Shown in pieces: positions 20,560-64,000 of a stretch of DNA of 64,000 nt. The notes below the pieces were generated by a model. That model did no database searches, was not told where the DNA came from, and was given only the letters and a program-made list of their open reading frames with translations. The translations under genes and the position numbers were made by a program. Source of the DNA: Ascaphus truei (Eukaryota > Chordata > Amphibia > Anura > Ascaphidae); contig CM071570.1 in the NCBI GenBank assembly GCA_036426205.1, forward strand, positions 57,456,926 to 57,520,925. Direction: 5' to 3'. Each line of letters begins with the position of its first letter. Positions within the stretch are counted from its first letter, which is position 1.

Positions 20560-20568
20560 ATGTTGACA

Positions 20569-29440: not shown

Positions 29441-30123
29441 GTTACATAAATGAACAGGGTATACATTACATTATATACAAGACATTGCATGCACAGTTAA
29501 AGAAAATATATATTTTATAACAAGGCCTGTTAAAAAAAAAGATTTCTCTTTTTCTTTTTGTTTGCCCCATTATTATGATGTTGTCATTAGTGGAACACCC
29601 AAAAACAAAAAGTATGTGATAAGCAAGCATACATTTCAATTGACTTAAGCAAACTGAATATATATTAATTTGCCACTGCACACATACTGTACAATAACTT
29701 ATTTATTTTAATATAGAGTTAAAGGGATTAGCTAATGTAGTACTCTGGTTAGCTATTTCAGGATTGTTGGCCCAGTATATTTTGTTCTTCTGTTGAGTCC
29801 TGTTGATGGGCGCAGTACCCATTTAAGGATTGTATACAGTATAAGGGTTTTATTTTTCAGCCATTTCTGAATGCATTATTTAGATGTGTATAATACATTA
29901 ATATTTTATAACAAATCAGTTTATTATGAAGATTTAACAGGTCTACTATAGACCCTGAATTTTAAAGATTGTTTAGATTCAGTTGTTATTAAAATTATGC
30001 TCATTTAGTATGCCAATGTTTATAATTTATGTGCCCTTCGCTCGCACATTGTGTTAATTGTCGGCTCTCCCAGCTGTTTTGCCTGATATGTAAGGCTCCC
30101 TATTAGCTGCTGATGGACAATAA

Positions 30124-37004: not shown

Positions 37005-37858
37005 GTGAAGAGCAGAGGAAGTCAGAAGATGGATGAGCCTGATCTGCCCAGCGTTGCCACCGGCCGGGGCATCGCCAAATTGCGTATCATCATACCGCAG
37101 CGTAAGAACACTTCCCCCTTCCCTCTGCCCAAGGCCACTGCCCAAACCCCTGCCCCTGTCACATCTTCCTCTGGGTCCCAATCTAGCCCTGGGTGGTCTG
37201 GGGAGTCCCGGGACACGTCTGAAGAAAGGACTGGGTCAGCTATGGACTGGGGTGAATGCTTTACTTCTGATGAGGGTTCGGGGATGGAAATGATTCCTGC
37301 TAGGACATCTCCGAGAATGAGTCCTACCGGTTATGATACCACTGTGAGGGGAAGGTCTAAACGTTATGGGTCCGCCTCTAGATCCACTGGTACATCGGGT
37401 GTCTCTTCTGGGAGAGAGACTGAGGAGAGTGAGACAGCAATGGCAGTAAAAGAGCATGCTGTGGAGCAAAGCACCAAGTGGTGGGCTCCCATGTTTGAGG
37501 GGTATGAAGCCTGGCTAGATCACACCCGATTCATATTATTAAGAGGAGAGGTGGTTGACCACTGTGAGATGTGGGCGAATACTCTGAGGAGGAATGCCAG
37601 GAAGAGTTAGTGAGACGGTGGTACGAAATACAGAAGGGACTAGTCAGTCCAAGGGGATCCTCTATACTATATGATGTAATTGCTCCTGAAGAGCCACTAT
37701 CTTGGGTTCTGCCAGGCAAGGCAGGCAATAAGAAATTGATCAGAATCAGCAGGGCTGAGAGGGCCATAGTTGCACGCTACAAGCGGTCCCATGGATTAGA
37801 ATACCCCTACAGAGGCGGCCGCCTTTATCCTAATGTGTCTGGATCCATGACGCTCTGA
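37005..37858 (+). pseudogene. Gag-like frame 2 of the LTR element, frameshifted
   Basis: The frame 37005-37610 is Ser/Thr/Pro-rich (residues 1-140) and ends in a more ordered region (KWWAPMFEGYEAWLDHTRF). A frameshift near 37590 moves the reading to 37571-37858 (EECQEELVRRWYEIQKG, then RISRAERAIVARYKRS). This looks like a capsid-type helical region, possibly continuing at 54070-54363 across a large insertion. No pol motifs were seen. Evidence for gag is positional and compositional. Confidence 0.45.
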
Positions 37859-38559
37859 TAATCTCGGTCAGATGCGTTTTTTTTTTGGTCCGGAGTGAAT
37901 TGCGTTATTTTAGCGCTCATGAAATTAGCATTTTATTCTCGCTGTCTGCAATACTGCAATACCGTCTAAAAACTCAGGGGGGCATTCGCGAGCTGTTGTC
38001 TTGGAAGTCTAATACCTTAGCAGTTCAACCTACGTCAGTACACAGTCTGCGTGTGTGCGCGCGCAGTAATTGTAAATTTGCATATTTACTGAATACATGC
38101 ATTTGCAGTGCTGTATGTCTTATTTGAAAATTGTTGAAACGCATAGGCGTGTACAGTACTGTAACAGTGTCACATTTCGGCATATACTGTACAGCGCTCT
38201 CCCCTCGCTCGCCCCCGCACACACACAGGATAATATACTGCACTGCAGGGTATTTCAACTTCTTATCTTATCTACAGTGCAGTACATCTCTCCCATACCA
38301 TTCCTTTGGACGCGTGGCTTTCTGGTTTCAATCACATTCCTGCTTGACAGCAGATGATTACTGCGCATGCGCCTGTAACTTCACCCACCACTGCTTGCTT
38401 GAGTGAGTGAAAAAAAATTCTCCTCAATTTTTAATGTTTATTTTCTCCACAAGCCTGCAAAAACAATCTTGATATTACGATATTCAATCTGTGCTGTAGC
38501 ATTTGACTGCACATGGTTTGATTTGTGTGCTTTTTATGTACTGTATTTGGGAGTGTAGG
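37859..38559. repeat. Left part of the inserted block, start of tandem repeat array
   Basis: Non-coding sequence following the gag-like frame, from a T-run (TGCGTTTTTTTTTTGG) onward. From about 38340 it matches units at 45630-47060 (TTACTGCGCATGCGCCTGTAA, CTGCACATGGTTTGATTTGT, TTTGGGAGTGTAGGGATCAT). The array is then interrupted by the PLE at 38572. Confidence 0.55.
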
Positions 38560-39234
38560 GATCATATTATTATAAACAAAAAGAGATACCGGCGCCTAAT
38601 GAGTCCAAAATAGATGGAAGTCCAATTATGATAATCCCAGTCCCAAGATGATCTACAGTCACTAAATCCTTGGGTGCTCCGTTAGGAATTCATGCAGTGG
38701 AAGTGGAATAAAAGAAGAGAGATAATTAGTGCAACACAGCTATACAGATTACACAGACATATAAATGCAAACTGGCTGTCACAAGGAGACAAGACAAACA
38801 GACACAACTAGACAAACAACATTAAAGCAAAGCTAATGATAAAAGTTAATTTATAATAACTAAAAATAAAGGTAGGACAAGTTCCTGGTGTGCCGCTCCG
38901 GTGGGTTAAAATCTAGATAACACTCACAGGACGGCAAATGTAAAATCGCATTAGACCAATGTGAGCTGCTGTCCACGTGTAGGGGGTTCGCGGGGTGTTC
39001 AGGATGCCATGCACTCCTTCCTCCTTGCTGGCAATGACCGGAACTGGCGTCTCCGTCGTGCCGAAACCGGAAATGATGTCGCCGGATGTGACATCAAGGA
39101 CTGGCAATCTCCAGTGAAGCCTCAGGAAAACGGCAATCCACACCTCCTTGCCCCTCTATCGCTCAACCAAGGCACTCAGCGATTGTACTGCTTGTAATTC
39201 TACTCAGCAAATGTGTCCAAAATCGAAATAAAAT

Positions 39235-39278
39235 AGCCCTACGCGTTTCATGTGTCTAAACACACTTCCTCAGGGGAT
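39235..39278 (-). ncRNA. Hammerhead ribozyme, left outer segment
   Basis: The minus strand reads CCCCTGAGGA, stem II TGTGT/ACACA with loop TTAG, TGAAACGCGTAGGGC. CUGAGGA fits CUGANGA, GAAAC and ACGCGT are intact and CCC/GGG forms stem I. Mirror of the motif at 44536-44579. Confidence 0.65.
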
Positions 39279-39593
39279 ATGAAGTGATGGCAGTGAGGCC
39301 AGGTATATATATCCTCAGCTTGGCTCCGATTGGTCTGTCAATCAGGGCAATCATGAGGATACACCAATTGGCATATTAAATCACTGACATTTGATTCAGC
39401 TTTGCATGACAAAGACATAGAAAACTTAACACAACATTTAACATGACATAAAACAGATAAAAATAGTGAATTGATATAATCAATGGCATTTGGCAATACA
39501 CAGTAGAGTATAAAAATACATAAAAAACATATATATATATAAAAATTCCCCTATTTAAAGGGTGGAAGAATAAAAGAAAACGTACACCTGATG

Positions 39594-40860
39594 TTATAAG
39601 AACGCTCCTTGCTCAAAGTCTATATCTAACCCTCTTGGGGATAATGTTTTAAGCTCGTATATCCAGTATGCCTCACGCATACTGGATCTTTTTAATCTGT
39701 CACCACCTCTTGCACTAGCAGGAATTGTCTCAATGGCTTGGCATTTAAGACCGCTAGGATTTTTATCATGATGTGTGAGGAAATGATGGGATACGCTATG
39801 GGTTGTCAGTCCTCTTTTTATATTGTATATGTTTTCATATACTCTCCTCTGATATGTTCTTCCGGTCCTTCCCACATATTGCAGGCCACAAGGACATTGG
39901 AGCAGATATATGACAAAACACATATGACAGTTAATATGTCACTTGATAGGATGTTCTTTCTTGGTAACGTTAGATTTAAAACTCTTAGCATTGTTACTGT
40001 ATGCACACGCCATACACTTTGAACATTTAAAAAAAACCTTTATCTATCATAGCTCTATTCTATTTTAGATGAATGAGTGGACAACTAGGAAGCATCCTGG
40101 ATTTTAGATTTGACGCCCAGTAAATATAATTTGCGGTTTCATAGGTAGAAATCCTGCTAGAACATTATCCCTCAATAAGTTGGCCAGTGTTTGTTGATTA
40201 TTTTTTTGATTTTTGGTGCCATGCCATTATATTGGGTAATGAATGGTACCTTTCAAAGAAATTGTTTTTTAGATCTTTTTCTTGTAGACAGAAGATCCTC
40301 TCTTCTCATATTGGTAACATGATTGATAACCTCATCAAGAGGATGCTCTGGGTAATTCCTACTGAGAAACTTGACATTCAGTTCCTCTGCCTGTGACGCA
40401 AAGTCGCTAATGTCAGAACAATTGCGTCTTAGGCGGAGAAATTGACCCCTCGGTATGTTCTTTATCCACAAGGGATCATGCGAATATCGGCTCTTAGATA
40501 GGTATTAGCCTGCCACTGGCTTGAAATTGTTTTGGTATGTAAAGTGTGATTAGTGATTAAATATTCAAATCCAAAAAATCAATGTGCTCTGTACTGTGAT
40601 GGAAAGTAAACTCAAGATTTTTATCGTTATTATTTAAATAAGAAAAAAAGTGTGGTAATTGAGCTTCGCCGCCGGACCAGATGAATAAACGTCATCATAT
40701 AACGTTTCCAGAGCACCAGGTCTGCCCATATGGACAGTTGTTCAAAATCGAACCTTCCTCCCAACTGTCCATTAAAAGATTTGCATAACTTGGGCAAACC
40801 TGGTGCCCATTGCGGTTCCACATACCTGGTTATAAAATTGGGAATAAAAATGAAATAATT
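39594..40860 (-). pseudogene. PLE RT thumb plus GIY-YIG endonuclease (segment 1)
   Basis: Reading the minus strand from 40860: RT pieces (NGQLGGRFDFEQ, VLWKRYMMTFIHLV in place of YIDDVIFIW), IPRGQFLRLRRNC near 40430-40470, then the linker (HWPILLRDNVLAG-like, disrupted near 40150). The complete 109-codon endonuclease end at 39923-39594 follows: MCFVIYLLQCPCGLQYVGRT, Arg-rich helix, MREAYWIYELKTLSPRGLD. The catalytic box is altered and several frameshifts are present. Confidence 0.75.
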
Positions 40861-41122
40861 ATGGGTAAAATAAAAAAAATGCTATCAATAAAATTGTTTT
40901 TTAGCAGATGTTAGTTGAGGTGGGATTCAATTTTTGAGATATTGCCCTGCAGCCCAATTGATGGTCTATAATCGTATACAGTGACTTAACGTCCGCTATC
41001 CAACGGGTGGTAACAGCAGACGTTAAGTGCAATGTATACGATTATAGACCATCAATTGGGCGTAGGGCAATTTCTCAAAAATTGGATTCCACCAATCAAC
41101 TAACATCTGCTAAAAACAATTT

Positions 41123-41960
41123 TTGATTGATAGCATTTTTTTTATTTTAACCCATAATTATTTCATTTTTAATTCCCAATTTTATAACCAGGTATGTGGA
41201 ACCGCAATGGGCACCAGGTTTGCCCCAAGTTATGCAAATCTTTTAATGGACAGTTGGGAGGAAGGTTCGATTTTGAACAACTGTCCATATGGGGCAGACC
41301 TGGTGCTCTGGAAACGTTATATAGATGACGTTATATTCATCTGGTCTGGCGGCGAAGCTCAATTACAACACTTTTTTTCTTATTTAAATAATAACGATAA
41401 AAATCTTGAGTTTACTTTCCATCACAGTACAGAGCACATTGATTTTTTGGATTTGAATATTTATATCACTAATCACACTTTACATACCAAAACATATTTC
41501 AAGCCAGTGCAGGCTAATACCTATCTAAGAGCCGATAGTTCGCATGATCCATTGTGGATAAAGAACATACCGAGGGGTCAATTTCTCCGCCTAAGACGCA
41601 ATTGTTCTGACATTAGCGACTTTGCGTCACAGGCAGAGGAACTGAAGTGCAAGTTTCTCAGTAGGAATTACCCAGAGCATCCTCTTGATGAGGTTATCAA
41701 TCATGTTACCAATATGAGAAGAGAGGATCTTCTTGTCTACAAGAAAAAAGATCTAAAAAACAATTTCTTTGAAAAGGTACTGTACCATTCATTACCCAAT
41801 ATAATGGCATGGCACCAAAAATCAAAAAAATAATCAACAAACACTGGCCAATCTTATTGAGGGATAATGTTCTAGCAGGAGTTCTACCTATGAAACCGCA
41901 AATTATATTTACTAGGGCGTCAAATCTAAAATCCAGGATAGCTCCTAGTTGTCCACTCAT
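41123..41960 (+). pseudogene. PLE reverse transcriptase (segment 2, best-preserved RT)
   Basis: A 236-codon frame (41123-41833) holds the RT palm and thumb: GTAMGTRFAPSYANLLMDSW, then the catalytic YIDDVIFIW (about 41318-41345), EFTFHHSTEHIDFLDL, and IPRGQFLRLRRNC (about 41567-41605). A frameshift near 41790 moves reading to the linker (KHWPILLRDNVLAG). The frame stops at the junction with segment 3 at 41970, where the zinc and endonuclease part should follow. No upstream RT motifs precede the palindrome centre. Confidence 0.8.
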
Positions 41961-41970
41961 TCATCTAAAA

Positions 41971-42700
41971 TTTAGCCGTTGTTTGTTGATTATTTTTTTG
42001 ATTTTTGGTGCCATGCCATTATATTGGGTAATGAATGGTACCTTTCAAAGAAATTGTTTTTTAGATCTTTTTTCTTGTAGACAAGAAGATCCTCTCTTCT
42101 CATATTGGTAACTTGATTGAATAACCTCATCAGAGGATGCTCTGGGTAATTCCTACTGGAAACTTGCACTTCAGTTCCTCTGCCTGTGACGCAAAGTCGC
42201 TAATGTCAGAACAATTGCGTCTTAGGCGGAGAAATTGACCCCTCGTATGTTCTTTATCCACAATGGATCATCGAACTATCGGCTCTTAGATAGGTATTAG
42301 CCTGCACTGGCTGAAATATGTTTTGGTATGTAAGTGTGATTAGTGATATAAATATTCAAATCCAAAAATCAATGTGCTCTGTACTGTGAGGGAAAGTAAA
42401 CTCAAGATTTTTATCGTTATTATTAAATAGAAAAAAAGTGTTGTATTGAGCTTCGCCGCCGGACCAGATGTATAACGTCATCTATATAACGTTTCCAGAG
42501 CACCAGTTCTGCCCCATATGGACAGTTGTTCAAAATCGAACCTTCCTCCCAACTGTCCATAAAAGATTTGCATAACTTGGGGCAACCTGGTGCCCATTGC
42601 GGTTCCACACCCTGGTTATAAAATTGGGAATTAAATGAAATAATTATGGTTAATAAAAAAAATGCATCAAATCAAAAATGTTTTTTAGCAGATGTTAGTT
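41971..42700 (-). pseudogene. PLE RT fragment (segment 3, reversed)
   Basis: Mirror image of segment 2. The minus strand again carries the linker, IPRGQ-type thumb and RYIDDVIHLV near 42480-42500, but with frequent one-base deletions. The join at 41970 is a direct hairpin turn from the linker of segment 2 into the linker of segment 3. Confidence 0.7.
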
Positions 42701-42959
42701 GAGTGGTGGATTCAATTTTTGAGATATTGCCCTGCAGCCCAATTGATGGTCTATAATCTAATACAGTGACTTAACGTCCGCTATTACCAACGGGTTAACA
42801 GCAGACGTAAGTCACTGTATACGATTATAGACCATCAATTGGGCTGTAGGGCAATTTCTCAAAAATTGGATTCCACCACTCAACTAACATCTGCTAAAAA
42901 CAATTTTGATTGATAGCATTTTTTTATTTTAACCCTAATTATTTCACTTTTATTCCAAT

Positions 42960-44180
42960 TTTATAACCAGTATGTGAACCGCAATGGGCACCAGGTTTGC
43001 CCCCCCAATTATGCAAATCTTTTTATGGACAGTTGGGAGGAAGGTTCGATTTTGAACAACTGTCCATATGGGCAGACCTGGTGCTCTGGAAACGTTTATA
43101 GATGACTTATCTATTCATCTGGTCTGGCGGCGAAGCTCAATTACAACCTTTTTTTCTTATTTAAATAATAACGATAAAAATCTTGAGTTTACTTTCCATC
43201 ACAGTACAGAGCACATTGATTTTTTGGATTTTGAATATTTAATATCACTACTACACTTTACATACCAAAACATATTTCAAGCCAGTGCAGCTAATACCTA
43301 TCTAAGAGCCGATAGTTTCGCATGATCCATTGTGGATAAAGAACATACCGAGGGGTCAATTTCTCCGCCTAAGACGCAATTGTTCTGACATTAGCGACTT
43401 TGCGTCACAGGCAGAGGAACTGAGTGTCAAGTTTCTCAGTAGGAATTACCCAGAGCATCCTCTTGATGAGGTTATCAATCATGTTACCAATATGAGAAGA
43501 GAGATCTTCTTGTCTACAAGAAAAAGATCTAAAAAACAATTTCTTTGAAAAGGTACTGTACCATTCTTACCCAATATAATGGCATGGCACCAAAAATCAA
43601 AAAAATAATCAACAAACACTGGCCAATCTTATTGAGGGATAATGTTCTAGCAGGAGTTCTACCTATGAAACCGCAAATTATATTTACTGGGCGTCAAAAT
43701 CTAAAATCCAGGATAGCTCCTAGTTGTCCACTCATTCATCTAAAAGAGAATAGAGCTATGATAGATAAAGGTTTTTTTAAATGTTCAAAGTGTATGGCGT
43801 GTGCATACAGTAACAATGCTAAGAGTTTTAAATTTAACGTTACCAAGAAAGAACATCCTATCAAGTCACATATTAACTGTCATATGTGTTTTGTCATATA
43901 TCTGCTCCAATGTCCTTGTGGCCTGCAATATGTGGGAAGGACCGGAAGAACATATCAGAGGAGAGTATATGAAAACATATACAATATAAAAAGAGGACTG
44001 ACAACCCATAGCGTATCCCATCATTTCCTCACACATCATGATACAAATCTTAGCGGTCTTAAATGCCAAGCCATTGAGACAATTCCTGCTAGTGCAAGAG
44101 GTGGTGACAGATTAAAAAGATCCAGTATGCGTGAGGCATACTGGATATACGAGCTTAAACATTATCCCCAAGAGGGTTAA
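42960..44180 (+). pseudogene. PLE RT to GIY-YIG (segment 4)
   Basis: Covers MGTRFAPPNYANLF-like RT, thumb IPRGQFLRLRRNC (43340-43380), a 211-codon frame (43545-44180) with linker, Cys pair KCSKCMAC (about 43785), and endonuclease CFVIYLLQCPCGLQYVGRT (43887-43943) and MREAYWIYELK. The catalytic region near 43090-43120 is frameshifted. A stop follows the C-terminal HYPQEG where segment 1 has LSPRGLDIDF. It is the most complete C-terminal half of this family here. Confidence 0.8.
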
Positions 44181-44535
44181 ATATAGACTTTGAGCAAGGA
44201 GCGTTCTTATAATATCAGGTGTAAGTTTTCTTTTATTCTTGCACCCTTTAAATAGGGGACTTTTTATATATATATATATATATATATTTTATGTATTTTT
44301 ATATACTCTACTGTGTATTGCCAAATGCCATTGATTATATCAATTCACTATTTTTATCTGTTTTATGTCATGTTAAATGTTGTGTTAAGTTTTCTATGTC
44401 TTTGTCATGCAAAGCTGAATCAAATGTCAGTGATTTAATATGCCAATTGGTGTATCCTCATGATTTCCCTGATTGACAGACCAATCGGAGCCAAGCTGAG
44501 GATATATATACCTGGCCTCACTGCCATCACTTCAT

Positions 44536-44579
44536 ATCCCCTGAGGAAGTGTGTTTAGACACATGAAACGCGTAGGGCT
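44536..44579 (+). ncRNA. Hammerhead ribozyme, right outer segment
   Basis: CCCCTGAGGA, stem II TGTGT/ACACA, TGAAACGCGTAGGGC. All core positions fit CUGANGA...GAAA with predicted cleavage after GTA. Palindromic ACGCGT as minimal stem III suggests pairing between two ribozymes. It lies 3' of the endonuclease gene, as in known PLE terminal repeats. Confidence 0.7.
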
Positions 44580-45387
44580 ATTTTATTTCGATTTTGGATA
44601 CATTTGCAGAGTAGAATTACAAGCAGTACAATCGCTGAGTGCCCTGGTTGAGCGATAGAGGGGCAAGGAGGTGTGGATTGCCATTTTCCTGAGGCTTCAC
44701 TGGAGATTGCCAGTCCTTGACGTCACATCCGGCGACATCATTTCCGGTTTCGGCACGATGGAGACGCCAGTTCCGGTCATTGCCAGCAAGGAGGAAGGAG
44801 TGCACGGCATCCTGAACACCCCGCGAACCCCCTACACTTGGACACCAGCTCACATTGGTCTAATGCGATTTTACATTTGCCGTCCTGTGAGTTTTATCTA
44901 GATTTTAACCCACCGGAGCGGCACACCAGCAACTTGTCCTACCTTTATTTTTAGTTATTATAAATTAACTTTTATCATTTGCTTTGCTTTAATGTTGTTT
45001 GTCTAGTTGTGTCTGTTTGTCTTTTCTCCTTGTGACAGCCAGTTTGCATTTATATGTCTGTGTAATCTGTATAGCTGTGTTGCACTAATTATCTCTCTTC
45101 TTTTATTCCATGTTCCACTTCCCTTGCATGAATTCCTAATGGAGCACCCAAGGATTTAGTGACTGTAGATCATCTTGGGACTGGGACTATCATTATTGGA
45201 CTTCCATCTATTTTGGACTCATTAGGTGCCGGTATCTCTTTTTGTTTATGCTGTCTTTTCTGATTGTACCATCAGTTTTCCACCAGGCTGCCTTTCTACC
45301 AATAGGGCTCCCCCTCATAGCAGGGTTCATTGTCTTTATTCCCATTAGCGCTTTTTTGCATCACTTTTTCTTTCTGATCATATTATT

Positions 45388-47060
45388 TTGATAAACTGCC
45401 TTTTGAAATGAAAATATGTCATTATCTTTTAACTTCATGCAGCTGTACCCTGTAGCCCCCTCCCCCATGCACACACACAAGGCTCGCTCAAGGATTTGAA
45501 ACTCTTATCGACAGACACCTCCACAGAGTCATTCATTTTCTGAAGTTTGCCATTGTGTTCTTAATCCGTCCCTAGCCGAGCGTCACCTCACTGCACCTGC
45601 GAGTAATCCTCTTTGAGATGGGAGCCAGCTGATTACTGCGCATGCGCCTGTAAATTCACCACAGCTTGCTTGAGTGAGTGTCCAAAAAAAAATAATAATA
45701 ATAATTATTCTCTTCATTTTGTATTTTTATTTTCTCCACAAGCTTGCAAAAACCATCTTGATATTACGATATTCAATCTGTGCTGTAGCTTTTGACTGCG
45801 ACCCTGTGCGTTTGACTGCACATGGTTGATTTGTGTGCTTTTTATGTACTGTATTTGGGGGTGTAGGGATCATATTTTATGATGAACTGCCTTTTGAAAT
45901 TATGTCATTTCTTTGAACTGCAGTTCTACTGATCTTGAGTATTTCAACTTCTTATCTTATCTACAGTGCAGTACACCTCTCTCACACCATTCCATTGAAT
46001 GTGTGTCTTTCTGGTTTCAATCACATTCCTGCTTGCTTGTGAAGTTCAAGAGTGATTTTTTATTTTTATTTTCTATCTCTGTGCTGTAGCTTTTGACTGC
46101 GACCCTGTGCGTTTGACTGGACATGGTTGATTTGTGTGCTTTTTATGTACAGTACTGTATTTGGGAGTGTAGGGATCATATTATTATGATGAACTGCCTT
46201 TTGAAATTATAGTATGTCATTTTCTTTGAACTTCATGCAACTGTACATTGTATCCCCCTCCCCCACGCACACACACAAGGCTTGCTCAAGGATTTTAAAC
46301 TCTTATCGACAGACACCTCTACAGAGTCATTCATTTTCTGAAGCTTGCCATTGTGTTTTTAATCCGTCCCCAGCCGAGCAGCACCTCACTGCACCTGCGT
46401 GTAATCCTCTTTGAGATGGGAGCTAGCTAATTACTGATAACATGATAACATGAATGTAAATAAATATTTATTTTATCAGGAAGAAAATAAATAAATATAA
46501 AACGCTTGTCATTGTGTTTTTAATCCGTCCCTAGCAGAGCATCACCTCTCTGTAAATTCACCACGGCTTGCTTGAGGGAATGTCCAAAAAAAAAAAAAAG
46601 AACATTTTTTTCTCCTCATTTTGTATTTTTATTTTCTCCACAAGCCTGCAAAAACCATCTTGATATTACAATATTCAATCTTTGCTGTTGCTTTTGACTG
46701 CAACCCTGTGCGTTTGACTGCACATGGTTGATTTGTGTGCTTTTTATGTACTGTATTTGGGGGTGCAGGGATCAAATTATTATGATGACCTGCCTTTTAA
46801 AATTATGTCATTTCTTTGAACTGCTGCACAGCTAATCCTTCATGCAGCTGTACCGTGTAGCCCCCTCCTCCACGCACACACACAAGGCTCGCTCAAGGAT
46901 TTGAAACTCTTATCGACAGACACCTCCACCTCCACAGAGTCATTCATTTTCTGAAGCTTGCCATTGTGTTCTTAATCCGTCCCTAGTCGAGCGTCACCTC
47001 ACTGCGCCTGCGTGTAATCCTCTCTGAGATGGGAGCTAGCTGATTACTGCGCATGACTCA
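45388..47060. repeat. Tandem repeat array, units of roughly 500-800 bp
   Basis: Recurring blocks: ACTGCCTTTTGAAAT (45397, 45888, 46193; variant at 46791), ACACACACAAGGCTCGCTCA (45473, 46876; variant at 46271), TTCTGAAGCTTGCCATTGTG (three places) and ATTACTGCGCATGCGCCTGT (45631, partial 47044). It continues the array broken by the PLE at 38572. Such arrays can be subterminal repeats of a large DNA transposon; that is inference. Confidence 0.7.
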
Positions 47061-47449
47061 CCCACCCCCCCCCAACCTTTTGAGGCTTTGTTTATGGTAA
47101 CGCTTTGGAAAAATCCATTCTCGAATTTGATATGTAAATCTGATTTGCACAGCACTGTGAGAATTGAGAGTTAAAAAAACCATTAACTGATTCATGTTGT
47201 TTTGTCATTCATTCTTTTTCTTTGGTGTACTGTAGGTGTGGGGGGGGGGGGGTTGTTGTCAATGATTATGATTATGTAAATAAATAATTATTTTATTTTA
47301 TCAGGAACCAAAAAAAACAAATAGAAAAATAATCATGAATAATACATAATGCGGTCTTTATTAAGTTCTTCTGTTTGATGGAAATTGATGGCCGGTGGAG
47401 AAACATGAATAATGCACATTGATAATAATATTAATTAATAATATATAAT

Positions 47450-47492
<43 letters not shown>

Positions 47493-47708
47493 ATATAATT
47501 TTTTCCGTCTTTATCTTCTTCCTCATTCTGTGTACAGTACAGTAGTTCATTGAGAGAGGAGAGGTTTTGTATACATCATTACTGCTGTTTAGATACTGTA
47601 CACTTAACTGTACAAACAGTTCACAGACTGTACACGACACCCCCCCCCCTCTCTCCCAGTTCATTCTTTTTTCCTGAAAAGACAAGAAAACAAAAAATTA
47701 GTGCAGTT
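47061..47708. other. Spacer with simple repeats
   Basis: Contains a G-run near 47240-47252, a (TA)n run at about 47455-47489 and a C-run near 47641. No gene. Short TATTTATTTTATCAGGAA phrases at 46460 and 47290 resemble part of the interspersed repeat family. Confidence 0.5.
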
Positions 47709-48178
47709 ATGTGCATTCTGTATTATGGCATTGTGTGCTGTGTAGTACTGTTAAACTAGTCTATTCTGGAACTACTGTATACTGTGACTACTGTTAAATA
47801 GTTTGGAACCAGATGGCTGGTGCTGCTCTCTCTGGAAATAAATAAATTGAGCAGTTAGGTGCATACTGTACTGTATTATGGCATTGTGTACTGTATACTG
47901 TATCTACTCTATATTGGACTATAGTACACTGTTAGCACTGTCAAACAAGTCCATACTGGAACTACTGTATACTCTGACTACTGTTAAATATTTTGTAACC
48001 AGATGGCTGGTGCTGCTCTCTCTGGAAATAAATAAATTGAGCAGTTACTGTACTTTAGGTGCATACTGTATTATGGCATTGTGTACTGTATAGCTACTCA
48101 ATATTGGACTACGGTATGCAGTTACCGTAGTACTGTCAAACTAGTCTATACTGGAACTACTGTATACTCTGACTACTA
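47709..48178. repeat. Three tandem units, about 150-200 bp each
   Basis: Each unit contains TGTATTATGGCATTGTGT, then CTGGAACTACTGTATACT, GACTACTGTTAAATA and, in the first two, CCAGATGGCTGGTGCTGCTC. They lie immediately beyond the 3' end of the transposase gene. Confidence 0.8.
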
Positions 48179-48258
48179 GGAAAGAAAAAGTATGTGCCAT
48201 ACTTATCTGTATCATACTGTACTTACAATACTACAGTACAGTACTTCAGTATACCATA

Positions 48259-50000
48259 CTACCTTCCTGATGCTTGCCCAATGCGCGCGATCACAATGGG
48301 CAACACAGTCGCAATATGGTCAATATATTTATTGCATCGTTCCACGGTGAGTACATCGTTCCAAAAACTCAGTATGCTTTTCGCCAACTCATCCTTATTG
48401 GAGGGTTTCACGACTTTTCGGATATGGTCCTTCAGCTGATGCCAGACCATTTCGATCGGATTGAAATCTGGCGATCTGTCATTGGAAAAAAAGGACAATT
48501 AGTTTAAGAGATACAGTACACAGTAAAAACAGTGGGCAAAAAATGAGACACGGTTACCGCACTTACTCCGCTAGCGTCTTCACCCAGTCGATACCGCGCT
48601 CAAGGATATGCGCTGTTAACGCGGTGTGCTTCGGATCGTTGCCTTGGTAGAAACGGTGACCATCCAGGAACTCATGTGTGATGTATTCCACAATCTCAGG
48701 CACAATTTTCTCTTGGAAGAAAGCTTTATTCATGATTCCTATAACAAAAAAAGAAAAGTGCTCAAAAAACTGCACACTAGTACAGTACAGTGCGTAAGGC
48801 AAAAGCGTGTGACATACATTTTACTGTACCTTCAAAGATGTCGATGCATCCTGGTCCACGCCTAGAGATGGCACCCCACACATGCATCTTCAAATGGGTG
48901 TTTTGGACGCGGCTTCATAGATATGCGACCTTTTTTGTGGAATGCAAAGGTGGCAAATCTCTCCAGCGAAACAGTAGACTCGTCAGTGAAGATGCAATCC
49001 TGGAAAGTTTCTCCACTGTCGATCCATGCCTGGGCCTGGACCACTCTCTTGATTTTGTTAACGTCCCTTATCATGGGGTACGCTCTGTAATGACAAGGAA
49101 TAAACAATTTTAGAGGTACAGTACAGTTTCTTAAACAACACTTTTACCTCCTGTACTGTCCAGTACTAACCTCATACACCCATATTTCCATCCAATTCTG
49201 CGTCTCATATTCTTTATGCTGGTCTCGGATACAGTCAGATTGTGATTTTCCTGCAGAGTGTATTTGACCCTTAATGCACTCTTCTCATCATTCTCCTCAC
49301 TTATTTTGTCGACCAGAAGAGTTGTCTCCCTACAATGTACAGAAAAACAACAATCCGGTAAGTTACAGTGCAGTAGGCCACAAGCACAGCACATCATTTG
49401 CAGTAAAAATAGTATACAATGAGATATTGGTCTATTAATATGCAGCAATGTAAAAAATATACATACTGTATACTGTTGTTATATAAATATACCGAAATAA
49501 CTATAAAATTAGATACAGTAGATCTACTGTACACAATATATTGTTCTATTAATATGCAGCAATGTAAAAAAATATACATATACTGTTGTTATATAAATAT
49601 ACTGAAATAACTATAAAATTAGATACAGTAGATCTACAGTACACAATATATTGTTCTATTAATATGCAGCAATGTAAAAAATATACATACTGTATACTGT
49701 TATATAAATATACCGAAATAACTATAACTATATAACTATAAAAAAGATACAGTAGATCTACAGTACACTATTACAGTACACTAGTAGATCTACATTACAA
49801 TATTTTATAAATAAATAAATAAATGTAGTTATATAAATATACTTACGCGTTAGTTACCGTTGGTGTCCTCGTGCGTTGTCTGGTTATTCCGTGTGCATGA
49901 TAGCTCACGTGGTTGCTGGCACAACGAGGCCAGAAGCAGCTAACCAGCGTTGGATATCTGCAATTCGGTGTCCGCTCGTGTACATCTCCTTAATTCGCAT
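48259..50000 (-). pseudogene. Tc1/mariner-type transposase with introns
   Basis: Exons, minus strand: 50000-49847 (N-terminal helix-turn-helix, MRIKEMYTSGHRIADIQRWL; one frameshift near 49905), 49329-49171 (second DNA-binding part, ending RRIGWKYGCMR), 49084-48830 (first catalytic Asp in FTDESTV), 48738-48567 and 48475-48259 (Glu in SPDFNPIEMVW). Introns 49330-49846, 49085-49170, 48739-48829 and 48476-48566 have GT-AG borders and keep the frame, for example TLA-E-SPDF across the last. The second catalytic Asp, in the family motif QDNDPKH, is Gly here (QGNDPKH), and a one-base shift lies near 48887. It is therefore probably inactive. Family members cut and paste DNA at TA sites. Vertebrate Tc1 elements are usually intronless, so this structure is unusual. 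Confidence 0.75.
48476..48566 (-). other. Intron in the transposase gene (91 nt)
   Basis: Donor GGA/GTAAGT, acceptor AATGACAG/ATCGCC. Splicing joins GCG-GA to A-TCG-CCA, giving A-E-S-P. This restores the family-typical residues before DFNPIE. Intron 48739-48829 is also 91 nt (GAAG/GTACAG ... TTATAG/GAATC). Confidence 0.75.
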
Positions 50001-50186
50001 GCTGAGATCCTTTGAAATCTAACAGGAATTGCTGCGAGTAGAAAGAAATACAAACACAAGAATGTATATTCGATGTTTAGTCGCTGTGTATTCAATGTGC
50101 AGTGAATCCACAAAATGGATGGTGTATTTATACGTTAATGACTCACATTAGAGTATGCCCACTTTCAACACCTGTACCTCGTCGCC
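50001..50186. promoter_or_regulatory. Divergent intergenic region between transposase and BEN gene
   Basis: A 186-base space separates the first coding Met of the minus-strand transposase (50000) from the plus-strand start at 50187. GTATTTATACG near 50126 is TATA-like for the plus gene. CCTGTTAG/ATTTC near 50022 on the minus strand could be an acceptor for a further 5' exon. Shared regulation is inferred from layout only. Confidence 0.4.
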
Positions 50187-51713
50187 ATGCATAAAAGGTT
50201 ACACACTTTGCAAAGCCCACCACTCGATGATCTTTATCTGAACTTGCCCTTGTCCAGATACTGCATTGTGCCATCTGCTTCGATGGATCAACCCCGATTC
50301 TACAGACGCAGGAAGCCACTCGCCTCTGCCGTGCCTGTCACGCAGAAAAAGCGAAAGGCGGCAGCCGTTTCCAAGCATAGGCCAAAGCGACAGGCTAAGG
50401 CCAATAAAGAAAACCTTCTGCTGACCCCAAAGGCTAAGGGTTTTAATAGACGTCAGTCTTATTATGTCAAGAAGAAATACAGTGAAGTACACTCAATGCA
50501 AAACAAATGGCAGCAAACCCATCGAACCCGCAGACCACTTCCTCCAATACGCTTTGACGATTCTGCTGCCGCTCTCCCGGATATCTTCAGCCCATCTTCT
50601 CCACTACTCGTCCTCGACGCTGCTGCTGCCCTCCCGGAAACCCACAGGCCATCTTCGCCACTGCTCTTTGACGACGCTGCCGCTGGTGCCCCTGAAATCC
50701 ACGGGTCATTTTCTCCTTTGCGCTTAGACGACTCTGACGCTTCTCGCCTGGAAATCCAGAGGTTACTTTCTCCATCCCTCTTCGATGACGCTGCCGGTTC
50801 TCCTCTCCCGGATATCCACAGGTCACCTCCTCCACCCTTCTTCGGCGACGCTGCCGCTTCTCTCTATGGAACCCCCATCTCATCCTCCATAGCACCCATC
50901 CACTCAGATGTCCACAGCACGCCATGCACAAGAAGCATCTCGTTAGACGGGATGCTGAATGGGATAAGTGTGGATATCCCCGGGAACTCTATTGTGCTGG
51001 CAAAGATAGATCTGCTTCTGGAGACCATGCTAAATATGGATCAACGGATGCTAAATATGGATCAATGGATGCAGAAGATGAATCAACAGATGGAGAAGAT
51101 GGATCGACGGATGGAGAAGTTAGAGACTGAAATAGCGGGGATACATAATTTGCTCGGTATTCATGTCCCTGTATCCCCGACGCCAGAGCAGGAGGGTGGT
51201 ATGGATGTGATGAATGGGACCTTCGAACACCTTCCATCACCAAGCGCACCCCCTCCACCAGAAGATTTTGTGTACATGTATGCCGTTGAGGAGGAGTATA
51301 ACATGACAACCCCGTCAAGACCACGCCAGGAGACAACACGGTGACCAAGACAGGAGGAAAGCTTCCTCCCAGACAACCTACCCTCGCCCGCCGCCACAAG
51401 CACACCCGCTCACGGAAGAACACCCGCTTCCAGAACCCAGCCTACATTCGCTTGCATTGATACGGTGCCCGACATCATCCTGCGCGATCTGCCACCAGCA
51501 CTCAGGGAGAAGTATAGGGTGATGAGTGCTGGTGTACCCCACAAGTATGCCTTGTTAATTTTTAAGCAGCACGTGTCCTACTTGATGTACTGCGAGTGGG
51601 CCTTCAAAGTGAACTACGAAGGAAATCGCGAAAAAAAGGCTCTTCCTGACAATTTAAGAAAGACCATTCTGGAGGAATTAAAGCGCTTTTTTTTTCAATT
51701 ACAGATCCTTTAA
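50187..51713 (+). pseudogene. BEN-domain protein with tandem acidic repeats and coiled coil
   Basis: One frame of about 508 codons with a single in-frame TGA at 51342-51344. Residues 30-100 are basic (RRRKPL, KKRKAAAV, RPKRQAKANKEN), a likely nuclear-localisation and DNA-contacting tail. Residues about 120-233 are six imperfect 20-residue repeats with FDDAAA-x-PEIHR-x-SPLL pattern. Residues about 278-315 form a Met-rich heptad coiled coil (MLNMDQRMLNMDQWMQKM). After the TGA the frame runs on to a C-terminal BEN-like domain (about 51485-51700): LREKYRV, then FKVNYEGNREKKALPDNLRK and TILEELKRFF. BEN domains bind DNA and chromatin partners. It lies head to head with the transposase. The BEN call is by eye from the KKALP...LR..I....RRFF pattern. 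Confidence 0.65.
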
Positions 51714-52616
51714 TGAAAGGCGTTTGAGACTGCATTAATGGCATTTTGCGCCATGCAAGTCATCAGCCATAGAAGGACAATCTGGTGGAGTACGCATTTG
51801 CGTGAGTGTTCAACTGTTGTAAATTTTTTGTAAATGTTTTGTTCCAGTCCCCAAGGGCCGCAAACAGGCCTGGTTTTCAAAGGTTATCCTGAAAACCGGG
51901 CCTTTTTGCGGCCCTCAAGGACTGGAGTTGTGCAGGCCTGACTGACTGCTCTGCACACCATCCTACTGTAAATGTTTTGACTTGCTGTACTTTAATAAAG
52001 GAGATGTTGCTTTTTGTATATTTTATGAATAAAGAATTTTTTTTAATAACAGGTAAGACCATACTGTTGTGCTGTACAGTACATGTTTTGACCTGCTGTA
52101 CTTAAATAAAGGAGATGTTGTGTGTTTTAACTTGAATTAATAAATAAATGTTTTTATTTACTGTACACAAGACCTGCACAATTCCAGTACCCGAGGGCCG
52201 CAAACAGTCCCGGTTTTCAAAGGTTATTTGCGGCCCTCGAGGCCTGGAGTTGTGCAGGCCTGACTGACTGCTCTGCACACCATCCTACTGTAAATGTTTT
52301 GACTTGCTGTACTTTAATAAAAGAAAATGTAGATTTGTTTTAAATTGTTCCATTGTCTCCTTTGATACTGTAACAAAATACAGTGTTTCTAGAGTGTACT
52401 GTCCAAGCATACTGTACTGTATACTGTAGGCATGCTCAGTACTGTATATCCCAAGAGTATTAAATAAAATACAAGACACATACTGTACTGTATGCACTGG
52501 TATAGAAGACATGCATACTTTTTATTTTCTCGGGTTTATTATACAGTATACTGTATATAAAAAAAAGCATTGTATACAGTACGGTCTGAAAACATCAGCA
52601 TACTGTTTCAGGTATT
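51714..52616. other. 3' flanks of the BEN and forkhead genes
   Basis: Two related hairpin repeats (about 51843-51924 and 52193-52248) with GGGCCGCAAACAG, GGTTTTCAAAGG and GCGGCCCTC lie in tandem, each followed by TGTGCAGGCCTGACTGACTG and CACCATCCTACTGTAAATG. AATAAAGGAGATG at about 51997 could be the polyadenylation signal of the BEN gene. AATAAA-like sequences on the minus strand near 52520-52545 could serve the forkhead gene. Otherwise TACTGTA-rich sequence. Confidence 0.55.
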
Positions 52617-52743
52617 CTATCCTAATCCATAACAATGGCCACTAAACTGTAGACTCCGTACGTGGTTTTTTAAATCCGATTCAGCAATGTGCAGGCATTG
52701 CGATATTATCCATCGATATCCCTCCATTTGCCGTTTTCTTTTC
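52617..52743 (-). other. Possible second exon of the forkhead-like gene
   Basis: Minus-strand acceptor TTTTTTCCTCAG at 52744-52755 opens a 41-codon frame (KRKRQMEGYRWIISQCLHIA ... GHCYGLG, stop at 52617). The upstream exon ends with a perfect donor, CTATG/GTGAGT, near 53070. Direct joining creates TGA at the junction, so either this is untranslated or a base error or frameshift lies upstream. Confidence 0.35.
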
Positions 52744-52755
52744 TGAGGAAAAAAT

Positions 52756-53067
52756 AAATAAAAGTTTTACTGTAATGGTCAGTCCCCTAAAGAAGTTCCC
52801 AGTTAGTCCCCCCAATAATTTTCTCGGGGGGCGTCTCCTGTTCACATGTGCATGCGCCTACCATTGATGTGATGACACGCATATGCGTTTCAAGAAGGTT
52901 CCAATGCACATGCGCCTAGCGTTCCACCATTTGTTCAGTATCTGCAGTACTGTAGAAGCCGCTCAGCCAATGATATTGGTTACAGGAGAATCGCTTGACT
53001 TTTGAATCGCACTGATATTGATATTTTCAAAATAAAAAAAAAACAGAATAAAATACGGCAACATTAC
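52756..53067. other. Spacer or intron with inverted CATGCGC repeats
   Basis: GTGCATGCGCCTACC (52848) and GCACATGCGCCTAGC (52906) flank ACGCATATGCGTTTC. The region would be the intron of the forkhead gene if 52617-52743 is an exon. No other feature. Confidence 0.4.
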
Positions 53068-53670
53068 TCACCATAGAATTTCCCATTCAGCTGGCGCCGG
53101 GCCACTGCCAGTCCAGTATTCTTGATCATACATGTTGACAGTTGACAGCGGGACTACTACACCTGTAGTCAGTTGATGAGGCTGGATATCGCTTAGGTAC
53201 ATGCAGGCTTGCTCGAAACTGCACGTGAAATCTGGCTCAGGCTGCAAGTATCCGTGCGTGGACAGACAGCAAGGGTTGTCACTGACGGTCGGACCGTTAT
53301 TGGAAGCCGGTGCTGGTGCATTGCTTGCCAGTGACTGTCGTTTCTTAGTTGGTTTTAACATGACCTTTTGCCTTTTGCCATCTGCATGATCATAGATACA
53401 GGAAAAACTCGGTGATACACACCAATACCCTCCAATAAATTCGGGATCAATACGATAAAAACATGGATCGCTACATAACTTTTTCCTTATTGCACGCTTC
53501 CACACATGAGGAGCTGGCGAAAATTTGTAAAAGTCATAGTTTTCGATAAAATACTGATAAATTTGAACAACTGTTGCCATCTTATCATCTGTTGCATTAA
53601 TTGCGGCCCATATTAAATAAGCGCACGTTCTGTTGGGTTTTTGGAACACGGGCTGGACTTGTACACTCAT
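53068..53670 (-). CDS. Forkhead (winged-helix)-like protein
   Basis: 200 codons from ATG 53670, uninterrupted. Residues about 12-90 follow the forkhead fold: RTCAYLIWAAINATDDKMAT for helix 1 and the turn, VVQIYQYFIENYDFY for helix 2, then VWKRAIRKKLCSDPCFYRI for recognition helix 3 (family W-x-x-SIRHxLSxxxCF), and GGYWCVSPSF for the wing strand (family GxYWxLxP). The usual SIRHNLS is AIRKKLC, so DNA specificity may differ. A basic stretch (KRQKVMLKPTKKRQ) follows at about 105-118. Forkhead proteins are transcription factors and are not known as standard transposon genes. It sits inside an LTR retroelement, 1.35 kb from the BEN gene. Reading to TGA at 53068 overlaps a good splice donor. Confidence 0.7.
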   Translation of the reverse strand: MSVQVQPVFQKPNRTCAYLIWAAINATDDKMATVVQIYQYFIENYDFYKFSPAPHVWKRAIRKKLCSDPCFYRIDPEFIGGYWCVSPSFSCIYDHADGKRQKVMLKPTKKRQSLASNAPAPASNNGPTVSDNPCCLSTHGYLQPEPDFTCSFEQACMYLSDIQPHQLTTGVVVPLSTVNMYDQEYWTGSGPAPAEWEILW

Positions 53671-54069
53671 GGCGGGACTCTCTGGACAATAACCAGAAAC
53701 TGGTGCTTGTCTTTCTTTAATGTGAAAAGCCTAAATTGATACATTATTGTAACCTCTTCCTTCAGTCCCAAGGCCAATTTACAATAGCCCACTGTGGTAT
53801 CTTTTTTAAACGAAACACCTGCAAGTCGACACATTACTGAAGTGCATGCGCATTACAATTCATGAAAATCTGCCATCTGGCGGACACGCGAAGAATTGCA
53901 ACCTAGTAAATCTGAACCATTCTCAATAAACGCATCAACCGCGCATCAACCGCGCATCAACCGCGCATCAACCACGCATCAACCGCGGCTGAGAATGCGG
54001 CATGCACCCGGTGAAGTGCGTAGCATTCGAAAACAAATCCAGGAAAAATGCGGTGATGTTGTAGAATAA
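53671..54069. other. Upstream region of the forkhead-like gene and right edge of the inserted block
   Basis: Non-coding. Contains a tract of five 11-bp units (next entry), followed by GGCTGAGAATGCGGCATGC and GAAGTGCGTAGCATTCG. Somewhere between here and 54070 sequence resembling the LTR element resumes. No clear inverted terminal repeat with 37875 could be established. Confidence 0.4.
53931..53985. repeat. Five tandem 11-bp units CGCATCAACCG
   Basis: Units are contiguous with one variant (CGCATCAACCA), with no spacers, so this is a minisatellite. It could serve as a subterminal protein-binding array; that is speculative. Confidence 0.9.
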
Positions 54070-54363
54070 AAGGGGCCACGACAGTATGTACCAGAACCTC
54101 TTATGCAGGAAATAGAGGACAATAGGGATGCTTGGTTAAGGGAGTCTGTGGAGGACTACATCAAGTTTAAGTCTAGTCATGTGGAGCATAGGACAGAGGC
54201 TAGAATTTGCTATCTAATGAGAATCTGGAGTATTGGGCGCAATATCTATATGCACAAGATGGAGTACCGGCCTGGGAACGGGCAGTCTAGATGCTATAGC
54301 ATATCAGTGCTAGATGCTAATGGGAGGGAGGTAAAGAAGCCTGATCCCAGGCATTACTACTGA
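54070..54363 (+). pseudogene. C-terminal gag-like fragment before the 3' LTR
   Basis: Frame KGPRQYVPEPLMQEIEDNRD ... ending RHYY stop at 54361-54363. The first Met is at 54103, but the frame is open from a TAA near 54064, so it may be the continuation of the split reading at 37571-37858. It contains a helix-rich segment (WLRESVEDYIKFKSSHVEHR). I recognise no known domain. It lies 190 bases before the 3' LTR. Confidence 0.45.
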
Positions 54364-59438: not shown

Positions 59439-60081
59439 TGGTGCCTTGTAGCTCACCTGTAGGTTTCCAGGAGGTCTGAGCCTCCGCAGATAGTAGAGGG
59501 AGTAGGCAACAGGACAGGTTTTCAGTACGTTGGTGCAGCGCCTCCATCCTCCAGAGCTCTGCCTTGGGCAGGGGTATTCTCCACAGGAACCCTCCCAGTA
59601 ATAAACTCCAGACAGGGAAACAGTTCAACTATTTATTGGTAGACCAGCTCAGATCCTTTCATCTCATGCAAGAGAGGTGCTCATCACACAGCATTTCTCA
59701 TAGAATATTTCCCCTCGCAGCTTGCATCTTGTCATTTCCTTTGACTAGGCCCCCAGGAGCTTGAGGCCCCTGGCCTAGTCTGAACCCCCTTACCCCCTTA
59801 TGGGGTAAGGTAGAAACAACACCCACTCCCTAAGGGGCATGCTAAACTGGAACACACCTCAATTTGATAGGGAGCCATCTTTTGTACCAGGGGAGGGTCC
59901 CACTCCTAAGCTCCTGTAACTGGCAGCACTCCTCTACGGAAACCGATACAAGTTAACACCTTGCTGAGGAAACTCACATGCTGGCCCATGTGAGATAGAT
60001 TTAACCCTCACACAGCCTGCTCCTTACCAGGACTTACAGTGCTAGGGCCAGGAAACACATAGCCAGGGGCACTGGGCTACA
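59439..60081 (-). repeat. Solo LTR, 643 bp, with perfect 5-bp target duplication
   Basis: On the minus strand it starts TGTAGCCCAGTGCCCC (60081) and ends GGCACCA (59439). TACTG flanks both ends on the plus strand (59434-59438, 60082-60086). CCAATAAATAG near 59636 is the polyadenylation signal candidate. The first bases, TGTAGCCC, match the start of the LTR at 54554, but the body differs. The duplication overlaps the edge of the MITE, so it inserted later. Confidence 0.8.
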
Positions 60082-60086
60082 TACTG

Positions 60087-63000: not shown

Positions 63001-64000
63001 CTTGACAAATGTAATTGAACAAGTGTGATGCAGTATCCCTGCTAGTTAAAAATAGCATCATTTCAAGAAGCTGTATGCTTTTTGAAGCACAATTTTCTGA
63101 TTTCAATTCCATATACTTAGATTGACATCACAGAGCATGACATTGCCATATTATCTCCATGGTAACATATTAATCTTTATACTTACTTAAGTGACTAGGG
63201 AAAATGGTACTATACCTGTGCATACCAAGCTTTCATTTAAAAGCTTGTCCATCTGTGTTCTGTGTCTCATCTTCTGAGGCATATACTGAAATTGAAAAAC
63301 TGTGACCTTCAGACTTGAGAGGAAATGTAAACTGGAGACTATAATTTCACTTTTAGTTGTCGAAACTCTAGTATTTCTGTAATTTGTTTCCTGCTACCAG
63401 CAATAAAGTATATAGTCTGTCTTGTCTCTGTTAAACAGGAATCTGTTATCTGCCAGATATATGGCATACAGTATATTATTGCTTTTGTGGGTAATTAAGC
63501 TCCAGCGAAAATGGTTTACCCGCCTGATAATGCCGAATTGCAGGTTATTATTGGTATTATAATTAGCTCCAATAATGTAATAACTCCAAATAAAGGTCTC
63601 TTTTATGCTTTTAGTGTATTGATCAGCTGGGTTACCATACTATAGAAGAGGCACTTTGTCTGAGAACTGGCACCAGAGTTTAGATGGACTTACATATCAA
63701 TACATTTACAGGTTGTTTAATCTTGATTTCCTGCAGGTCCAAGTCACAATCAGTTAAGGATATATGAAACACAGAGTTGTCTTACACCAATAGCAATCAT
63801 GGGCTGTAAATATTAAATTGGGATCCTTTACTGCAATTCAGAGAATCAAAGCAGGGTGCACTTTTGTAGAATTCTTTGTTTCTGTAATTCTGCATAGTAA
63901 AATAGTCAAATAGGGAGACAATAGTCAAAAACCAACAACGGTACAAGAACAACAAGCCCATGATCCTTGATGGTTAAGGCTTAGCCAGTAAGGAGAGACG
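60087..64000. other. AT-rich host-like sequence without recognised genes
   Basis: Short frames look random. One microsatellite at 61721-61764. GGTTTCTGGGACCCTCAGTT then CCCCAGGATCCACAGCTGG near 62329-62370 looks like part of a dispersed repeat. No splice-linked coding blocks or conserved protein motifs were noticed. Confidence 0.5.
61721..61764. repeat. Microsatellite (CACG/CA)n
   Basis: ACACGCACGCGCGCACGCAC passes into about ten CA units. Confidence 0.95.

What the first reader, a model, noticed from the sequence alone, without database searches (positions are those of the whole stretch)
48259..53670. Transposase, BEN-domain and forkhead-like genes clustered in one inserted block: a candidate undescribed large DNA transposon
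Seen: an intron-bearing Tc1/mariner-type transposase (minus), a BEN-like gene in divergent orientation 186 bp away, and a forkhead-like gene 1.35 kb further on. All lie in a non-coding block (about 37860-54069) that interrupts the gag-like region of an LTR element. Known: Tc1/mariner elements are normally 1-2 kb with a single gene; BEN and forkhead are DNA-binding domains of host regulators. Inference: the block is one transposon that has captured or evolved two DNA-binding accessory proteins, perhaps recognising its own subterminal arrays (45388-48178, 53931-53985). Terminal inverted repeats were not found, so the three genes could also belong to different elements.
Basis: partly seen in the sequence, partly recalled or inferred. 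Interest (0 to 1): 0.85.

Follow-up and report, generated by a model that had tools for sequence, protein, structure and literature searches.

The report
Frog transposon carrying a forkhead gene
A large jumping gene, present many times over in a frog genome, carries its own copy of a forkhead-type DNA-binding gene (a domain otherwise known from animal gene regulators) beside its transposase and a third gene, and the forkhead gene shows signs of having been kept working while the element was spreading.

Summary
The unit recurs across the 2.8-Gb genome: of 20 fetched transposase copies 20 have the second gene, and of the 16 whose stretch reaches that far 12 show forkhead sequence; of 14 forkhead copies 11 have the second gene alongside; an exact left end occurs 509 times, its reversed control 0. 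The transposase is Tc1/mariner-type, five exons, 32 residues between the last two catalytic positions. The forkhead domain is real (Pfam 1.1e-13) with an altered recognition helix, and shows constraint in shared but not private substitutions (p=0.0105; p=0.145 at a stricter cut). The 'BEN' label failed its tests; that gene shows no constraint. Function is inferred: an element-encoded DNA-binding helper, perhaps for the TACTGTA words that fill the element (50-54 per copy, 1.2-1.5 expected). Ten paper searches listed no transposon with a forkhead gene.

The parts
37808..37809 (.). TA target-site duplication, left
   Evidence: Window sequence; TA precedes the end in 11 of 11 left ends found among 20 copies; of two further left ends L041 has TA and L033 has TT.
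37810..37827 (+). left terminal inverted repeat (majority of 10 left ends: CAGTGGCGGCCGCCTTTA)
   Evidence: TA plus this end plus NCCTAA occurs 509 times exactly in the genome, reversed control 0.
37810..54084 (.). whole DNA transposon (9,598 bp without the Penelope-like insertion)
   Evidence: Left edge 37806-37808 and right edge 54076-54088 in BLAST of copies; exact ends; length.
38573..45249 (.). later insertion: palindromic Penelope-like retroelement, not part of the transposon
   Evidence: Self-inverted at 94%; weak RT match (0.0052) and GIY-YIG-like frames by eye; in the nine copies whose left arm is listed, 38573 runs straight into the arm repeats (best nine pieces per copy shown).
45250..48258 (.). 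left arm: tandem repeats rich in TACTGTA/TACAGTA
   Evidence: 21 motifs, shuffled mean 0.7.
48259..50018 (-). Tc1/mariner-type transposase gene, exons 50018-49847, 49329-49171, 49084-48830, 48738-48567, 48475-48259; this copy dead (2 frameshifts, second catalytic D is G)
   Evidence: (DDE_3 7.5e-12).
50187..51712 (+). second gene: about 19-20-aa S/P-rich repeats, heptad-like stretch, conserved C-terminal domain; not shown to be BEN; frame broken here at 51342 and near 51692
51761..53067 (.). spacer rich in TACTGTA/TACAGTA (16 motifs, shuffled mean 0.3)
53068..53730 (-). forkhead-domain gene, one open frame
   Evidence: Pfam Forkhead 1.1e-13; 150 of 150 scored genome matches at E<1e-124.
53931..53985 (.). 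11-bp tandem array near the right end
   Evidence: D12.
54067..54084 (-). right terminal inverted repeat; read inward it starts CTG here and in 6 of 10 copies, CAG in 4 of 10
54085..54086 (.). TA target-site duplication, right
   Evidence: TA follows the right end in 10 of 10 right ends read (6, 4 more).

Best explanation
SHOWN: a DNA transposon of the Tc1/mariner (IS630) superfamily, 8.2-9.6 kb in the copies measured, with short inverted ends and TA duplications, carrying a five-exon transposase, a forkhead gene and a third gene, amplified to high copy in a frog genome. SHOWN STATISTICALLY, modestly: transposase and forkhead were under purifying selection while the family was active; the third gene was not detectably so. 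INFERRED: the transposase binds the short ends, cuts and inserts at TA; the forkhead protein is an element-encoded DNA-binding helper that acts on the element itself, either by driving transcription of its divergent genes in the germ line or by binding internal sites so that two ends 9 kb apart are brought together. The TACTGTA words that fill most of the non-coding DNA are candidate sites for it or for the transposase. The window copy can no longer make an active transposase.
For: Same ends, gene order and (with exceptions told below) orientation in independent copies; empty-site frame restored; exact left ends 509 against 0; 6 of 31 forkhead matches on C1 and on C2 below 174.2 Mb have an exact left end within 20 kb, 6 in the expected orientation, 0 in the other, 0 on the other side. 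DDE_3 7.5e-12 and Tc1-type relatives. Shared against private substitutions: forkhead w=0.53 against 1.14, p=0.0105; transposase 0.43 against 0.95, p=0.002; forkhead in a wrong frame 1.45 against 1.44. One internally deleted copy among 14 forkhead loci (L033) lost the other two genes and kept forkhead. TACTGTA 50-54 per element in three copies, shuffled 1.2-1.5.
Against: Forkhead constraint is not significant when 'shared' means three copies or more (0.58 against 0.99, p=0.145), and pairwise dN/dS is 0.675 for the frame and 0.83 for the domain alone. The strict forkhead site GTAAACA is not enriched (0-2 per element, about 2 expected); the loose site RYAAAYA is only mildly in excess (27-31 against 19-20, about 2 sd, within the shuffles' range). 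4 of the 16 transposase copies that reach so far lack forkhead and a fifth, L018, keeps 32 bases of it. In L028 forkhead and right end are inverted. No binding or transposition assay exists.
Confidence: 0.8

Rival explanations
1. The forkhead gene is a passenger: a host or foreign gene caught between the ends and copied along with the element without helping it.
For: The second gene shows no constraint though carried in 20 of 20 transposase copies; 4 of 16 assessable copies lack forkhead; forkhead constraint fades at the stricter cut; strict forkhead sites are not enriched.
Against: Shared substitutions in forkhead are depleted of amino-acid changes (p=0.0105) while the wrong frame is not; about 85 of the 150 scored genome copies show no stop in frame (my count, a list biased to the best preserved); a deleted derivative kept forkhead alone.
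Confidence: 0.25
2. The forkhead protein acts on the host rather than on the element, for example by altering host transcription so that the element escapes silencing or is expressed in germ cells.
For: Forkhead proteins are host transcription regulators (established knowledge); constraint on the gene.
Against: The recognition helix reads HVWKRAIRKKL in place of the usual WxNSIRHNL (role of these residues recalled), so host forkhead sites may not be bound.
Confidence: 0.2
3. Three different elements nested by chance in one block.
For: The window alone could not exclude it; a Penelope-like element is indeed nested inside.
Against: Fixed ends and the same gene order in independent copies.
Confidence: 0.01
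4. Forkhead is an ordinary single-copy host gene beside a transposon.
For: None found.
Against: 150 of 150 scored matches at 85-100% identity spread over the genome.
Confidence: 0.005

Closest known systems
Tc1/mariner (IS630) superfamily, vertebrate Tc1-like elements
   Same: DDE_3 transposase, TA duplication, short inverted ends, the left one starting CAGT; relatives such as a Latimeria 'Tcb1' transposase at 48%.
Ciliate TBE and Tec elements
   Same: Tc1/mariner-related elements with three open frames, one in complement (passages of PMC7325037).
   Different: Their inverted ends are about 700 bp and the second frame of Tec is a site-specific recombinase; here ends are 18 bp and an accessory gene is forkhead.
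Metazoan forkhead (FOX) proteins
   Same: Forkhead domain above Pfam's cut-off; best solved matches FOXL2, FOXN3, FOXP3 at 35-36 bits.
   Different: Low similarity to all matched FOX chains, altered recognition helix, encoded by a transposon in many copies.
Harbinger, Kolobok and similar two-gene DNA transposons (recalled, no call)
   Same: Transposase plus a separate DNA-binding accessory protein.
   Different: Other transposase superfamilies and Myb- or THAP-type domains, not forkhead.

Membership tests
Tc1/mariner superfamily | TA target-site duplication | tested here: met
   12 of 13 left ends preceded by TA (11, L041; L033 has TT); 10 of 10 right ends followed by TA; empty-site frame restored.
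Tc1/mariner superfamily | DDE transposase of the DDE_3 / IS630 type | tested here: met
   PF13358 7.5e-12; 103 relatives at E<=1e-20, most listed with PF13358.
Tc1/mariner superfamily | terminal inverted repeats | tested here: met
   18 bp; left majority against the right end of L012 and L029 15 of 18, the window's own two ends 13 of 18 (counted by eye). Read inward the right end starts CAG in 4 of 10 copies, CTG in 6 of 10.
Tc1 family proper (DD34E) | 34 residues between second D and E | tested here: not met
   32 in copy L010; among 103 relatives 68 have 34, 12 have 35, 5 have 32, 1 has 31, 17 not readable. Filed in the superfamily only.
Tc1/mariner superfamily | N-terminal helix-turn-helix end-binding domain | tested here: inconclusive
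   Pfam finds none in the window transposase; many relatives carry PF13565 or PF01498.
Tc1/mariner superfamily | transposition activity | not testable with these tools
   Needs an assay.
Forkhead domain family | match above Pfam gathering score | tested here: met
   51.5 (window) and 54.4 bits (L031) against 27; the two A. truei proteins, partial gene models, fall below it (14.7, 17.9).
Forkhead domain family | canonical base-contacting helix NSxRHxLS (recalled) | tested here: not met
   RAIRKKLC in the window copy; the two A. truei relatives keep RKKLC. Domain membership rests on the profile; DNA specificity is probably changed.
BEN domain family | match above Pfam gathering score | tested here: not met
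   No BEN hit at E<=10 for window or L032 protein.
BEN domain family | BEN fold | tested here: inconclusive
   Model pLDDT 61.8; fold searches inconclusive; hhalign probability 0.1%.

The most novel reading that the evidence does not exclude
A transposon has captured a host forkhead gene, changed its DNA specificity, and seeded its own non-coding DNA with a matching word (TACTGTA), so that it carries a private transcription or end-bridging factor; internally deleted derivatives that keep forkhead may act as carriers of it.
Probability: 0.3. Interest if true: 0.9.

Novelty: new variant of a known kind. Interest (0 to 1): 0.8.

Why it matters
Host transcription factors born from transposases are well known (recalled); here a transposon carries a developmental-regulator domain as a gene of its own, with signs of selection. 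It gives a tractable case of gene capture by a cut-and-paste element in a vertebrate, a possible answer to how a Tc1-type element can be about five times the usual size, and a directly testable DNA-binding partner and motif.

Tried and rejected
BEN identity: Pfam on window, read-through and L032 proteins; an HMM of four solved BEN domains (neither form of the query appears in the hit table, whose best rows are shuffles); PDB sequence and profile searches (no match); profile-profile comparison (no better than the transposase control); single-sequence model (pLDDT 51.6); ten-row model and fold searches (no BEN entry among the rows). Kept only as 'looks BEN-like by eye'.

First boundary guesses were wrong: I read the right-hand gag frame as starting near 53985 and considered an 8-bp repeat at 37753/53987 as a duplication; the genome copies replaced both. 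Degenerate 11-bp units at the left edge are at chance level (18 of 33, as at many other places). The pair 48147/52485 as inverted ends was dropped likewise. In viral contigs no relative of forkhead or of a 116-residue piece of the transposase was confirmed. Rfam found nothing at its gathering scores. The A. truei protein P0003 ends where the window has its TGA, which first suggested a real stop; 13 of 17 aligned copies have CGA there, so recurrent decay is likelier. Species of the genome: not settled; the check with P0001 did not complete. Literature: 10 searches, read as listings, and passages of one paper.
Full report
WHAT IS THERE. Between 48259 and 53730 lie three genes as described: a minus-strand transposase with five exons and canonical splice sites, a divergent plus-strand gene from 50187, and a minus-strand 220-aa forkhead frame (Pfam 1.1e-13). 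The transposase exons joined give DDE_3 at 7.5e-12 and 103 relatives at E<=1e-20, three of them Ascaphus truei proteins at 88, 81 and 64% identity, one from Latimeria at 48%. In the 5.8-billion-protein set the forkhead frame found 2 proteins and the second gene 1 (where only the 7,997 candidates sharing most words were scored), all A. truei. The window is therefore frog DNA, of or near Ascaphus; the species was not settled.

ONE ELEMENT. When the genome search answered (query 48259-50259, which includes the first 73 bases of the second gene), it gave 81 matches from 40 scored candidates out of 6,429 of a loose first look. I fetched the 20 highest-ranked copies after the window's own, with flanks. 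BLAST of the window block against them put the left edge at 37806-37808 and the right edge at 54076-54088 again and again. The edges read TA|CAGTGGCGGCCGCCTTTA on the left and, in two forms...GCGGCTG|TA or ...CAG|TA on the right. Of the 20, 11 show the left end, 11 of 11 next to TA; of two more left ends, L041 has TA and L033 TT. Ten right ends were read, 10 of 10 followed by TA (6, 4 more); read inward 4 start CAG and 6 CTG. In the window the element is 37810-54084; the joined flanks read ...KRSHGLEYPYVPEPLMQEIEDN... in one open frame, so it sits in the gag-like frame of an LTR element with a TA duplication. A palindromic Penelope-like insertion (about 38573-45249) is missing from the nine copies whose left arm is listed; without it the window element is 9,598 bp. 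Copies L009 and L011 measure about 8.24 and 8.62 kb.

CO-OCCURRENCE. Of the 20 transposase-anchored copies, 20 have the second gene (L021 only 21% of it). For forkhead, four stretches end before the place (L013, L014, L023, L025; that of L023 lies where expected). Of the other 16, 12 show forkhead sequence, three of them only 5-24% (L018 32 bases, truncated; L020 and L024 cut by the stretch end), and 4 lack it (L010, L015, L016, L021); L015 has both element ends and has lost it. L028 has forkhead and right end inverted, and L017 carries a second, inverted transposase copy beside it. Starting from forkhead, 4 of 4 (L029-L032) and 7 of 10 (L033-L042) copies have the second gene alongside; of the three without, L033 is an internal deletion that joins the left arm to forkhead, L041 holds pieces of another copy, L038 shows none in the stretch. 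Two of the first four reach into the transposase; the other stretches were too short to tell. These forkhead loci come from the 150 best matches, so they favour well-kept copies. Of 31 forkhead matches on C1 and on C2 below 174.2 Mb (the range in which left ends are listed), 6 have an exact left end within 20 kb, all 6 in the expected orientation, at 9.1-9.4 kb (four) and about 14 kb (two); none lies on the other side.

COPY NUMBER. The exact 26-base left end (25 bases specified) occurs 509 times (255+254), the reversed control 0. Two of 13 sampled left ends match it exactly (L009, L027), so thousands of left ends are likely, with wide error. Forkhead gave 150 matches out of 150 scored, all at E<1e-124; 17,951 first-look candidates is not a copy count.

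ACTIVITY AND SELECTION. Of 19 copies in which all five exons were found, one (L010) has an uninterrupted transposase frame, but its first catalytic D is N. In the window the second D is G; in the 11 of 20 copies where that site could be read it is D. Substitutions private to one copy mostly arose after insertion; shared ones mostly while lineages were active. For the transposase w is 0.43 shared against 0.95 private (p=0.002; 0.29 against 0.88, p=0.0017, if shared means three copies), for forkhead 0.53 against 1.14 (p=0.0105; 0.58 against 0.99, p=0.145, at three copies), for the second gene 1.36 against 1.10 (p=0.375), and for forkhead in a wrong frame 1.45 against 1.44. An earlier run with 11-13 forkhead copies gave p=0.049 for the frame and 0.08 for the domain alone, and single transposase exons were significant in two of five. 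Simple pairwise dN/dS gives 0.675 for the forkhead frame (wrong frames 0.98 and 1.04), 0.83 for the domain alone, 0.44-0.49 for three transposase exons, and 0.84 and 1.18 for two parts of the second gene. The second gene may evolve fast, be misread because of indels, or be dispensable.

MOTIF. TACTGTA/TACAGTA occurs 5.6-14 times per kb in four non-coding parts of the element (both pieces of the left arm, the transposase introns with 5' flank, the spacer before forkhead), but not in the last 0.35 kb at the right end. It occurs 0 times in the transposase exons and in the other two coding bins, 0.6 per kb in the Penelope insertion, 0.46 and 1.3 per kb elsewhere in the window, which is itself above the shuffled mean (17 against 4.7; 13 against 1.8). 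Copies L009 and L011 have 50 and 51 per element, 1.2-1.4 expected from shuffles, and 1 and 3 in 1.8 and 1.4 kb of flank. This was an independent sign of unity before the copies were seen. Strict forkhead sites are not enriched; the loose consensus RYAAAYA is about 2 sd above shuffles. That the word is bound by an element protein is a guess; TA-CAGT is also how the left end begins.

THE SECOND GENE. It encodes S/P-rich repeats of about 19-20 residues, a heptad-like stretch and a conserved C-terminal domain, open to its end in L015, L020, L022, L030 and L031. By eye it resembles BEN; the tests failed or were inconclusive.

MECHANISM. Cut-and-paste at TA by the transposase follows from family knowledge. 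What forkhead does is inferred; helper binding to the element is my first choice (about half of my belief), passenger and host-directed action the rivals.

KNOWN AND NEW. The nearest multi-gene relatives of the superfamily that I could read about are the ciliate TBE/Tec elements (passages of PMC7325037). Ten paper searches, seen as listings, showed nothing with forkhead on a transposon; the most direct returned 0 papers. The library lacks most subscription journals, and Repbase could not be searched, so absence from print is not shown.

Noticed in passing
window 38572-45249: Penelope-like element pair (RT and GIY-YIG-like frames) arranged as a 6.7-kb near-perfect palindrome, 94% self-complementary, inside the transposon.
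   Followed up: partly
L033 (1-2900): Internally deleted derivative: left end and arm repeats joined directly to the forkhead gene, transposase and second gene gone, forkhead kept.
   Followed up: partly
P0006, P0007, P0008, P0010, P0013: A minority of Tc1-type relatives (5 of 103), from coelacanth, zebrafish and unnamed contigs, share the 32-residue D-E spacing, perhaps a small DD32E lineage; one paper search for DD32E with transposon returned 0 papers.
   Followed up: partly
window 27000-30000 and 60000-64000: Milder excess of TACTGTA/TACAGTA (8 each, shuffled means 0.6 and 0.9), perhaps remnants of related elements.
   Followed up: no
window 17339-19694 (-) and 14923-22193: Frames that look like Ty3/gypsy integrase and gag (minus) and another Penelope-like element; recognised by eye only.
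   Followed up: no
G000:C1:33925805 and 33928238: Two exact left ends facing opposite ways 2.4 kb apart, as if two copies or a rearranged one lie back to back.
   Followed up: no
window 51842-52261: Hairpin-forming inverted repeats of 35-50 bases, in two related copies, in the spacer between the second gene and forkhead.
   Followed up: no
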